A stretch of 64,000 nucleotides of DNA from contig NZ_CP079946.1 in assembly GCF_019968905.1 (NCBI RefSeq), forward strand, positions 8,777,356 through 8,841,355, read 5' to 3'. This DNA is from Corallococcus sp. EGB (GTDB lineage: Bacteria; Myxococcota; Myxococcia; Myxococcales; Myxococcaceae). The translations under genes were made by a program, and so were the position numbers. This document shows positions 55,964 to 58,105 of this stretch, piece after piece; the stretch's first letter is position 1, and every line of letters starts with the position of its first letter. Under the pieces are notes generated by a model that did no database searches, was not told the DNA's origin, and saw only the letters and a program-made list of their open reading frames with translations.

Positions 55964-56239
55964 ATGCGGTTCAACAAGCTCGGAGATGAGGACGTGGGCG
56001 AGTCCACCTCACTGCGCCACCGGAACCCGGACACCGGCGAGGATGAAATCAACATCTCGGACCAGGACCTGGCCGCGTCGCCGCCCATGGAAGAGGAGGC
56101 GGATGCGCGGGACATCCTGCCGGATCAGATCCAACGCTTCGGCCGGGGGGACGAGGAGGAAGAGGAGCGCGAGGTGAGCGCGCAGCCCGACGAGCCCGGG
56201 GCCCGCGCGCAGTCGCCGGACCTGCTGCCCGAGGGGTAG
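55964..56239 (+). CDS. small acidic hypothetical protein
   Basis: A 91-residue, very acidic protein (runs of Glu, for example GRGDEEEEERE, plus many Asp and Pro). It has no membrane segment and no family match. GAGGAG precedes ATG 55964. It lies between the DUF218 gene and the SUKH-H1 gene. An acidic partner for a basic histone-like tail is an idea only. Confidence 0.6.
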   Translation: MRFNKLGDEDVGESTSLRHRNPDTGEDEINISDQDLAASPPMEEEADARDILPDQIQRFGRGDEEEEEREVSAQPDEPGARAQSPDLLPEG

Positions 56240-56348
56240 CCGGGTCCGACCCGGGGATGTGAACAGGGCGCGTCCCCCGTGCGTGGGACGCGCCCTTTGT
56301 TCGTCAGGTGGAGGGCCCGTCAGGAGCCCCCCATCCACCGGGTCCGGC

Positions 56349-57533
56349 TCAGGACCGGCGGCGCGAGGACTTCTTCGCCGCGGACCTGCGGGCCGGAGCC
56401 TTCTTCGCGGCCCCGCGCTTCCGGGCAGCGCCCTTCTTCGCGGCGGCGCCACGCTTCTGGACAGCGCCCTTCTTCGCGGTGGCCTTGCCCGTGGCCTTCT
56501 TCGCGGCGGCCTTCTTCGCGGCCCCGCGCTTCTGGGCAGCGCCCTTCTTCGCGGTGGCCCCCTTCTTCACGGGGGACTTCTTCGCGGCGGCCTTGACCGT
56601 GGCCTTCTTCGCGGGGGCGCCCTTCTTCGCGGCCCCACGCGCGGGCGCGGACTTCTTCGCGGCGGCCCCCTTCTTGGCGGGGGCGGCCGGCGCCCCGGTG
56701 ATGGGCGGCTCGCGGCGGGCCTTCTTCGCGGCGGGGCGCTTCGGCTTGGCCTCCTCGAACAGCTCCTCCTGTTCGGGCGCCTCTTCGTCGCGCACGTCCT
56801 CGTCGGCTCCGGACTCCGCCTCACCGGTGTCCTCGGCGAGTTCCTCCTCCAGTTCCTCCTCGCCGGACACCTCGGCCTCGCCCTCGTCGTCGAAACCGTC
56901 CTCGTCGGCGGCCTCGGCGGCCTCGAATGCCTCCGCGTCGGCGGCATCCGTGTCGGCCTCCTCGCCCTCGTCGCCCACCCGCGCCGCGGCGCCGGACAGC
57001 GCGCCCTGGAGCACGGCGTTCATGGCGCGCGCGAAGGTGCGCTCCCCGAAGGTCTCCTTCTCCTCGACGGGCGGAATCAGCACCTCCAGCATGTCCTTGA
57101 GCGAGCGGTACATCCGCATGTCCTTCTTCTCGCCGTCCCAGGTGCCGAAGACCCAGTCCTCCCCGTCCAGCGCGTCCACCCAGCCGGGCAGCGGCCCGCC
57201 GCCGTCCCCCTGCTCCTCCATGGCGGACTTGCGCGCGACGAACAGGTGCCGGTGCGTCCCCTTCAGCCCGAAGCGCCACACGCCCGCGGCGGGCAGGCCC
57301 ACCACCATCAGGCGGCTCTTCTCCAGGACGCTGGGCTCCCCCTCGCCGCCATGCAGCGGGTACAGCCGCACCTCGCCCTGGAACTCACCGCCGTTGAGCG
57401 CCTGATACAGGTCCGCCAGGTCCTCGGGAAACGGGACGCCGCACTCCGTCTCCGCGCGGCGGACCTCCTCCGCCTGCACACCCTCCGAGGTCGTCTTCGC
57501 CGACTTGCGCAGTGACTCCAACCACTCGTGCAT
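56349..57533 (-). CDS. SUKH (SMI1/KNR4)-domain protein with histone-H1-like lysine-rich tail
   Basis: A 394-residue fusion. Residues 1-170 are a SUKH/SMI1-KNR4 domain: VRRAETECGVPFPEDLADLY, QALNGGEFQGEVRLYPLHGG, SRLMVVGLPAAGVWRFGLKG, DWVFGTWDGEK. About 190-265 is acidic (DEGEEADTDAADAEAFEAAE). The last ~125 residues are Lys/Ala/Arg/Pro-rich repeats (AAKKGAPAKKATVKAAAKK) like histone H1 or Hc1 tails and would bind DNA. Such an acidic-then-basic order recalls HMGA-like regulators of myxobacteria such as CarD. SUKH proteins are often immunity or scaffold proteins. Start ATG 57533. Confidence 0.8.
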   Translation of the reverse strand: MHEWLESLRKSAKTTSEGVQAEEVRRAETECGVPFPEDLADLYQALNGGEFQGEVRLYPLHGGEGEPSVLEKSRLMVVGLPAAGVWRFGLKGTHRHLFVARKSAMEEQGDGGGPLPGWVDALDGEDWVFGTWDGEKKDMRMYRSLKDMLEVLIPPVEEKETFGERTFARAMNAVLQGALSGAAARVGDEGEEADTDAADAEAFEAAEAADEDGFDDEGEAEVSGEEELEEELAEDTGEAESGADEDVRDEEAPEQEELFEEAKPKRPAAKKARREPPITGAPAAPAKKGAAAKKSAPARGAAKKGAPAKKATVKAAAKKSPVKKGATAKKGAAQKRGAAKKAAAKKATGKATAKKGAVQKRGAAAKKGAARKRGAAKKAPARRSAAKKSSRRRS

Positions 57534-57745
57534 GACCCCTCCACGACATCGACAGCCACCAGGGCTCGCACCTTAAGGCGCCTGGGCCCTCGTGCGCAGT
57601 GTGCATGTCGGGTTTCGTCTACCCGACGCCTGTAGACATACCTGGACAACCTGACACGCCGCCCCCGCCATCCCTCCTGGCCGCCTGCCCCCGAGCCTGG
57701 CGGCCCCGATGGAAGCCTGGCCCCTCGGGCGTTAGGAAGGACGCC

Positions 57746-58105
57746 ATGGCGCATCCCGTAAGCATCGAGGCGACGACCGAGACCTTCGACTCGCTCGTCA
57801 TGGAACCCCGCGACGAGCTGGTGGTGGTGGACTTCTGGGGTCCCGGCTGCCCCAACTGCGACATCTACGCGGCCGCCGAACCCGAGCTCCTCGAGGAGCT
57901 GGACGGCGCCCCCATGCGCGTCGTCAAGGTCAACGCCTACGAGCACGAGGCGCTGGCCACGCGCTTCGGCCTGTTCGGCATCCCCACCTTCCTGCTGTTC
58001 CGCAACGGGAAGCTCCTGGGGAAGATGAGCCAGTACTACGGCAAGCCGTACTTCCTGGGCGTCATCCGGGACCACCTGCCCGGCGGCGCCAAGGCCCAGG
58101 CCTGA
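57746..58105 (+). CDS. thioredoxin-like protein
   Basis: A 119-residue thioredoxin-fold protein without a signal peptide. The active site is WGPGCPNCDIY (Cys-x2-Cys with Pro-Asn inside), the cis-proline loop is FGIPTFLLFRNG, and the fold is complete. It would be a cytosolic thiol-disulfide oxidoreductase with an atypical CPNC centre. AGGAAGG precedes ATG 57746. It converges with the ABC gene. Confidence 0.85.
   Translation: MAHPVSIEATTETFDSLVMEPRDELVVVDFWGPGCPNCDIYAAAEPELLEELDGAPMRVVKVNAYEHEALATRFGLFGIPTFLLFRNGKLLGKMSQYYGKPYFLGVIRDHLPGGAKAQA

What the first reader, a model, noticed from the sequence alone, without database searches (positions are those of the whole stretch)
56349..57533. SUKH domain with acidic linker and histone-H1-like tail
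A SUKH domain is followed by an acidic region and a tail of many AAKK/APAKK-type repeats. Such a combination could tie a protein-binding module to chromosomal DNA. It also recalls the acidic-basic tail of CarD in Myxococcus, but without the CarD domain.
Basis: partly seen in the sequence, partly recalled or inferred. Interest (0 to 1): 0.6.

Follow-up and report, generated by a model that had tools for sequence, protein, structure and literature searches.

The report
SUKH protein with histone-H1-like tail
A conserved single-copy protein of the Myxococcus family joins a domain of a type best known for binding and cancelling toxins to a long acidic-then-basic tail like that of histone H1, so it may hold a partner protein on the chromosome or on another negatively charged polymer.

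Summary
Window 56349-57533, minus strand, encodes 394 aa: a head (1-186), an acidic block (187-261, 52% D+E) and a basic tail (262-394; 34% A, 26% K, 10% R). The head belongs to SUKH-1 only by its N-terminal signature (residues 19-62; 26.5 bits against Pfam's 25.4); the fold was not confirmed (AlphaFold pLDDT 50.8). One copy occurs in 64 of 96 Myxococcaceae genomes and none in the other 99 Myxococcota. It usually lies between a small acidic-protein gene and thioredoxin, near the ATP-synthase genes. Head and tail stay together: 62 of 62 orthologues with a tail of at least 60 residues have a K/R-rich end, and 56 of 62 a clear acidic block before it. The head is under purifying selection and no toxin gene was recognised nearby, unlike copy-variable SUKH relatives. 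Most likely it is a partner-binding adaptor held on DNA by the tail, working like CarD, PhaF or AlgP with a different head. That is inference: DNA, RNA and polyphosphate cannot be told apart here, and valyl-tRNA synthetase and Obg of this genome carry similar tails. New variant of a known kind; moderate interest.

The parts
56349..57533 (-). whole gene, 394 aa, ATG start, stop codon at 56349-56351
   Evidence: orthologues in 64 of 96 Myxococcaceae genomes
56976..57533 (-). head, residues 1-186, conserved (mean column identity 68% over 23 relatives)
57348..57479 (-). SUKH-1 (PF09346) signature, residues 19-62
   Evidence: profile-profile match to other SUKH domains over residues 15-50
56997..57050 (-). 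conserved FG(E/D)RTFARA stretch, residues 162-179, at the end of the head
   Evidence: conserved columns; helix in a low-confidence model
56751..56975 (-). acidic block, residues 187-261
56352..56750 (-). histone-H1-like Ala/Lys-rich basic tail, residues 262-394
   Evidence: HC2 (PF07382) 21.6 bits against a cut-off of 40; NF038053 27.8 bits against a cut-off of 80
57570..57575 (-). TAAGGT, a -10-like element upstream of the gene
   Evidence: present in each of the 20 chosen upstream regions aligned; reading it as -10 is inference, and the sigma-70 scan found no site
56265..56296 (.). hairpin between the convergent genes, probably a terminator
   Evidence: plus strand (3 terminator-like sites found against a mean of 1.5 in shuffles); the minus strand folds at -34.4 kcal/mol, z -3.75
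55964..56239 (+). small acidic 91-aa protein, convergent neighbour, almost always found with the focal gene; possible partner
   Evidence: both present in 62 of 96 genomes; no Pfam family at E<=0.01
57746..58105 (+). thioredoxin-fold protein, divergent neighbour
   Evidence: synteny

Best explanation
It is a housekeeping adaptor of Myxococcaceae. The SUKH-type head (residues 1-186) binds one fixed partner protein. The long, probably disordered tail binds DNA without sequence specificity through its Ala/Lys-rich basic part and so holds that partner on the nucleoid; the acidic block keeps the basic part from sticking everywhere and sets the spacing. Shown: the gene, its domain order, its conservation as a unit, and purifying selection on the head; no toxin gene was recognised nearby. 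Inferred: partner binding, DNA binding, disorder, and the role of the acidic block.
For: Head and tail are inherited together: 62 of 62 orthologues with a tail of at least 60 residues have a K/R-rich end and 56 of 62 a clear acidic block before it. One copy in each of 64 of 96 Myxococcaceae genomes, in the same gene order atpG - DUF218 - acidic 91-aa - gene - thioredoxin in 29 of the 34 loci fetched with up to 5 kb on each side. Head dN/dS 0.06-0.45 in 21 pairs. Myxobacterial CarD binds DNA through its acidic plus AT-hook tail (PMC4374960, passages). [quoted passage not shown]
Against: No DNA-binding data. Similar AAKK tails occur in this genome on valyl-tRNA synthetase and Obg, and the synthetase's tail is present in 12 of 12 genomes of the genus looked at, so the tail may be a general polyanion binder. 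Five of 62 tails are net acidic overall (L058, L062, L066, L067, L068) and net charge ranges from -30 to +69. Six of 62 lack a clear acidic block. One distant orthologue (L072) has only 8 residues beyond position 185. CarD's basic part is of the AT-hook kind, so it is not a direct precedent for this tail. The own-genome search with the H1-like family HC2 gave four places and the focal gene was not among them. The SUKH label rests on 44 residues and the fold was not confirmed.
Confidence: 0.45

Rival explanations
1. The tail is a general polycation that binds RNA, ribosomes or polyphosphate rather than the chromosome; the protein is an RNA- or granule-associated adaptor.
For: AAKK tails also on valyl-tRNA synthetase and Obg in the same genome; the synthetase's extension and tail are present in 12 of 12 genomes of the genus looked at. 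AlgP, with an H1-like tail, associates with polyphosphate granules (PMC9239181, passages).
Against: CarD, the experimentally studied myxobacterial protein of this layout, uses its acidic plus basic tail on DNA (PMC4374960, passages). The annotated neighbours do not point to RNA or polyphosphate.
Confidence: 0.27
2. It is an immunity protein of a polymorphic toxin system, with the tail parking it on DNA so that it can neutralise a nuclease toxin there.
For: SUKH proteins act as immunity proteins against the widest range of toxins, many of them nucleases (PMC3482391, passages).
Against: No toxin was recognised: the four window neighbours scanned are a DUF218 protein, a thioredoxin, an ABC transporter and the acidic protein without family, and 20 of the 36 recurrent flanking ORF clusters, scanned by one representative each, gave 8 with a family, none a toxin gene (the name 'putative AbiEii toxin' there and is an AAA-ATPase model overlapping the ABC transporter). 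The gene is fixed, single-copy and slowly evolving, while PF09346 hits number 4 to 14 per genome in 12 genomes of the genus, and of 30 other SUKH ORFs inspected none has such a tail.
Confidence: 0.1
3. The tail is low-complexity sequence drifting by repeat slippage in a high-GC genome, with no specific role; only the head matters.
For: Tail length varies from 101 to 469 residues among 62, and tail dN/dS exceeds head dN/dS in 20 of 21 pairs.
Against: Acidic then basic order is kept in 62 of 62, and segregation exceeds all 500 shuffles in 57 of 62; dN/dS of the tail stays below 1 in 21 of 21 pairs (rough alignments).
Confidence: 0.12

Closest known systems
CarD of Myxococcus xanthus and the H1-like CarD of Anaeromyxobacter and Vulgatibacter
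   Same: Folded protein-binding N-terminal part, then a disordered basic C-terminal tail; in M. xanthus CarD and in this genome's CarD the tail begins with an acidic segment (PMC4374960, passages).
   Different: The head is SUKH-like and not the CarD/CdnL RNA-polymerase-binding domain; no RGRP AT-hook in 62 tails, against four in this genome's own CarD.
AlgP and PhaF of Pseudomonas (granule spacing or tethering proteins with H1-like tails)
   Same: A head plus a K/A-rich H1-like tail that binds, or is thought to bind, DNA (PMC9239181, passages).
   Different: Heads are not described as SUKH there; the repeat is KPAA there and AAKK-like here; whether they have an acidic block was not tested. 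No sequence comparison was run.
SUKH-1 / SMI1-KNR4 immunity proteins
   Same: The N-terminal SUKH signature (PF09346).
   Different: The focal gene is single-copy and syntenic, no toxin gene was recognised nearby, and it has a long tail; of 31 SUKH ORFs inspected, 26 end within 16 residues of the domain and only the focal one has an AAKK tail.
Bacterial histone-H1-like proteins (HC2; NF038053)
   Same: Similar composition of the tail.
   Different: Scores are far below the curated cut-offs (21.6 of 40 and 27.8 of 80 bits), and the protein has a head domain.

Membership tests
SUKH-1 (PF09346) | profile score above the gathering cut-off | tested here: inconclusive
   Isolated head 26.5 bits against 25.4 (met), and 27.1 bits in the genome search; whole protein 25.0 bits (just missed). 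Only residues 19-62 match, profile positions 2-52 of 125.
SUKH-1 (PF09346) | similarity across relatives and to other SUKH proteins | tested here: met
   22 of 23 relatives match at E<=0.01; hhalign probability 90.9% over 36 columns; an iterated profile of myxobacterial SUKH proteins also reaches the focal protein, over positions 16-63 of the open frame.
SUKH-1 (PF09346) | SUKH fold | tested here: inconclusive
   AlphaFold model from 9 close sequences, mean pLDDT 50.8; Foldseek: no PDB match at E<=0.001.
SUKH immunity protein of polymorphic toxin systems | gene next to a toxin gene, variable and multi-copy | tested here: not met
   Fixed single-copy locus with housekeeping neighbours; no toxin among 20 of 36 recurrent flanking ORF clusters scanned, so not every flanking ORF was tested.
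CarD family | CarD/CdnL RNA-polymerase-interacting domain (PF02559) | tested here: not met
   The own-genome search with PF02559 gives three other places, not this one; Pfam shows no such domain in the protein at E<=1.
CarD family | acidic segment followed by AT-hook (RGRP) repeats | tested here: not met
   Acidic segment present, but RGRP in 0 of 62 tails.
Histone-H1-like tail | K/A/P-rich C-terminus | tested here: met
   34% A, 26% K, 10% R, 7.5% P; but the curated HC2 and NF038053 cut-offs are not reached and HC2 did not list the focal gene in the own genome.
Histone-H1-like tail | disordered and binds DNA | not testable with these tools
   Needs a binding assay and biophysics; no disorder predictor was run.

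The most novel reading that the evidence does not exclude
A toxin-immunity-type SUKH domain was taken over in an ancestor of large-genome Myxococcaceae as a core-genome chromosomal adaptor. It is joined to a histone-H1-like tail and works with the 91-aa acidic protein encoded next door, forming a nucleoid tether that is independent of CarD.
Probability: 0.25. Interest if true: 0.6.

Novelty: new variant of a known kind. Interest (0 to 1): 0.42.

Why it matters
SUKH proteins are known mainly as interchangeable immunity proteins, so a fixed, slowly evolving SUKH protein with a DNA-binding-type tail would show how such a domain becomes part of the core genome. It would also show that the H1-like tail of myxobacteria is a reusable module on several unrelated heads (this protein, valyl-tRNA synthetase, Obg, a TfoX-domain protein, and CarD in some genera), which makes 'what does that tail bind' a testable question.

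Tried and rejected
A profile search of PDB sequences gave nothing at E<=1. Plasmid and phage collections: no match. IMG/VR: 16 stretches matched a pattern, none a relative. The immunity reading was considered and set low. L115, another SUKH ORF with three KK, was looked at: they lie far apart, so it has no such tail. Literature: nine searches. The ones aimed at this protein were SUKH with Myxococcus (20 of 49 listed), SUKH with Smi1, immunity and toxin, SUKH superfamily, SMI1 with M. xanthus, histone H1-like with myxobacteria and tail and SUKH domain with DNA-binding; no title or abstract start in those listings, and no passage read, described this protein. Only openly licensed papers are held. 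Garcia-Heras et al. 2009, on H1-like and HMGA-like CarD tails, is not held; its title was seen only in reference lists.

Full report
What is there. The ORF at 56349-57533 on the minus strand encodes 394 residues. It has three parts: a head (1-186), an acidic block (187-261) and a basic tail (262-394), with the compositions given. The window lies in a 9.43-Mb genome. The named relatives nearest to it are Corallococcus species, so the window is probably Corallococcus; this is inference from the relatives.

SUKH assignment. Pfam SMI1_KNR4 (SUKH-1) matches residues 19-62: 25.0 bits for the whole protein and 26.5 bits for the isolated head, against a cut-off of 25.4. Of 23 aligned relatives, 22 match at E<=0.01. 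A profile comparison with 16 other SUKH domains of myxobacteria gives 90.9% probability, over 36 columns only. The rest of the head found no family; the AlphaFold model is poor (pLDDT 50.8) and its Foldseek hits mean nothing. NCBIfam shows nothing for the head of the window protein at E<=1. I therefore accept SUKH as likely, from its N-terminal signature.

Distribution. A match is found in 64 of 96 Myxococcaceae genomes, one per genome, in 11 of 26 genera, and in 64 of 195 Myxococcota overall, so by difference in 0 of 99 outside the family. A profile of 23 relatives finds the same count, 64 of 195. Three genomes of the window's own genus have no match; they are assemblies of 890 to 1490 contigs and also lack the acidic neighbour, so an assembly gap is possible. 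No plasmid, phage or viral-contig relative was found.

Head and tail travel together. Of 64 distinct orthologues, two were left out of the tail count: L069, cut by its contig end, and L072, whose tail is 8 residues. In 62 of 62 the most basic 40-residue stretch lies after the most acidic one; in 56 of 62 the acidic stretch has a net charge of -10 or lower; in 57 of 62 none of 500 shuffles segregates charge as much. The tails vary from 101 to 469 residues and from -30 to +69 in net charge; five are net acidic. None of the 62 has an RGRP AT-hook; this genome's CarD has four. HC2 and NF038053, the H1-like families, match the tail below their cut-offs, and the own-genome search with HC2 did not list the focal gene.

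Selection. In 21 pairs the head has dN/dS from 0.06 to 0.45, and the third codon position changes most in each; the tail's value is higher in 20 of 21 and below 1 in all (tail alignments are rough).

Neighbourhood. In 29 of the 34 loci fetched with up to 5 kb on each side (L040-L073) the order is atpG, DUF218 protein, acidic 91-aa protein, this gene, thioredoxin; the exceptions are L054, L069, L071, L072 and L073, and all of these but L072 reach a contig end. Other genes can lie between: an AI-2E-type transporter gene next to the focal gene recurs in 16 of the 40 loci (family). The acidic 91-aa protein is found in 63 of 96 Myxococcaceae. Set, both genes occur in 62, only the focal gene in two (G043, G083) and only the acidic one in one (G001); the match in G051 is weak (E 1.2e-6). 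In G014 and G015 the two genes lie 30-35 kb apart, and in G051 and G080 they are on different contigs. Shared descent and synteny alone could give this pattern, so a partnership is only a suggestion. The 20 chosen upstream regions share TAAGGT about 40 bases before the start and a purine-rich stretch before the ATG; the sigma-70 scan found no site.

Toxin neighbours. Four window neighbours were scanned, and one representative of 20 of the 36 flanking ORF clusters that recur in six or more loci. Eight of the 20 have a Pfam family (AI-2E transporter, ABC transporter, terpene synthase, DJ-1/PfpI, peptidase M3, universal stress protein, chemotaxis receptor, DUF3857); several of the rest are probably antisense frames. 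No toxin was recognised. The remaining 16 clusters were not scanned.

Other SUKH and other tails. Hits to PF09346 in 12 genomes of the genus number 4 to 14 each, the focal gene included where it is found. From the loci held, a capped selection of those places, 31 SUKH ORFs were inspected: 26 end within 16 residues of the domain, and two have three or more KK after it, the focal one and L115, whose three KK lie far apart. A DNA-pattern search for AKKxxAKK in the own genome gave six sites in five proteins: this one, valyl-tRNA synthetase, an Obg GTPase, a TfoX-domain protein (families confirmed) and a small H1-like protein (my reading). The pattern is strict, so more may exist. The C-terminal extension of the synthetase was found in 12 of 12 genomes of the genus searched, and its AAKK tail in the 12 loci held.

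Mechanism. The best-supported reading is a partner-binding head held on nucleic acid by an H1-like tail, with an acidic block that moderates it. Precedents, read as passages: CarD, whose C-terminal domain of acidic segment plus AT-hooks binds DNA (PMC4374960); CarD with an H1-like C-terminus in Anaeromyxobacter and Vulgatibacter (PMC9304148); AlgP, whose H1-like C-terminus is needed for granule spacing, and PhaF, whose tail is thought to tether granules to the nucleoid (PMC9239181). SUKH as the immunity superfamily with the widest range of toxins: PMC3482391 (passages). PMC12919014 (one passage) mentions an SMI1/KNR4 protein only in a table.

Verdict. It is a conserved new combination of known parts rather than a new kind of system.

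Noticed in passing
L085:1084-1806 (also L076, L120); G000 contig 1 near 4015630-4016406, plus strand: Valyl-tRNA synthetase carries a C-terminal extension with a TPR-like stretch (my reading) and an AAKK H1-like tail; extension and tail are present in 12 of 12 genomes of the genus looked at.
   Followed up: partly
L074:376-1662, plus strand: An Obg-type GTPase of 429 aa ends in an AAKK-rich tail.
   Followed up: partly
L075:1473-1892 (minus) and L078: A TfoX-domain protein with an AAKK tail and a small stand-alone H1-like protein in the same genome.
   Followed up: partly
window 55964-56239, plus strand: Acidic 91-aa protein without Pfam match, almost perfectly co-occurring with the focal gene (62 of 96 genomes have both).
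   Followed up: partly
counts; loci L080-L084 and L089-L116: PF09346 SUKH hits vary from 4 to 14 per genome in 12 genomes of the genus, as expected of fast-turning immunity repertoires.
   Followed up: no
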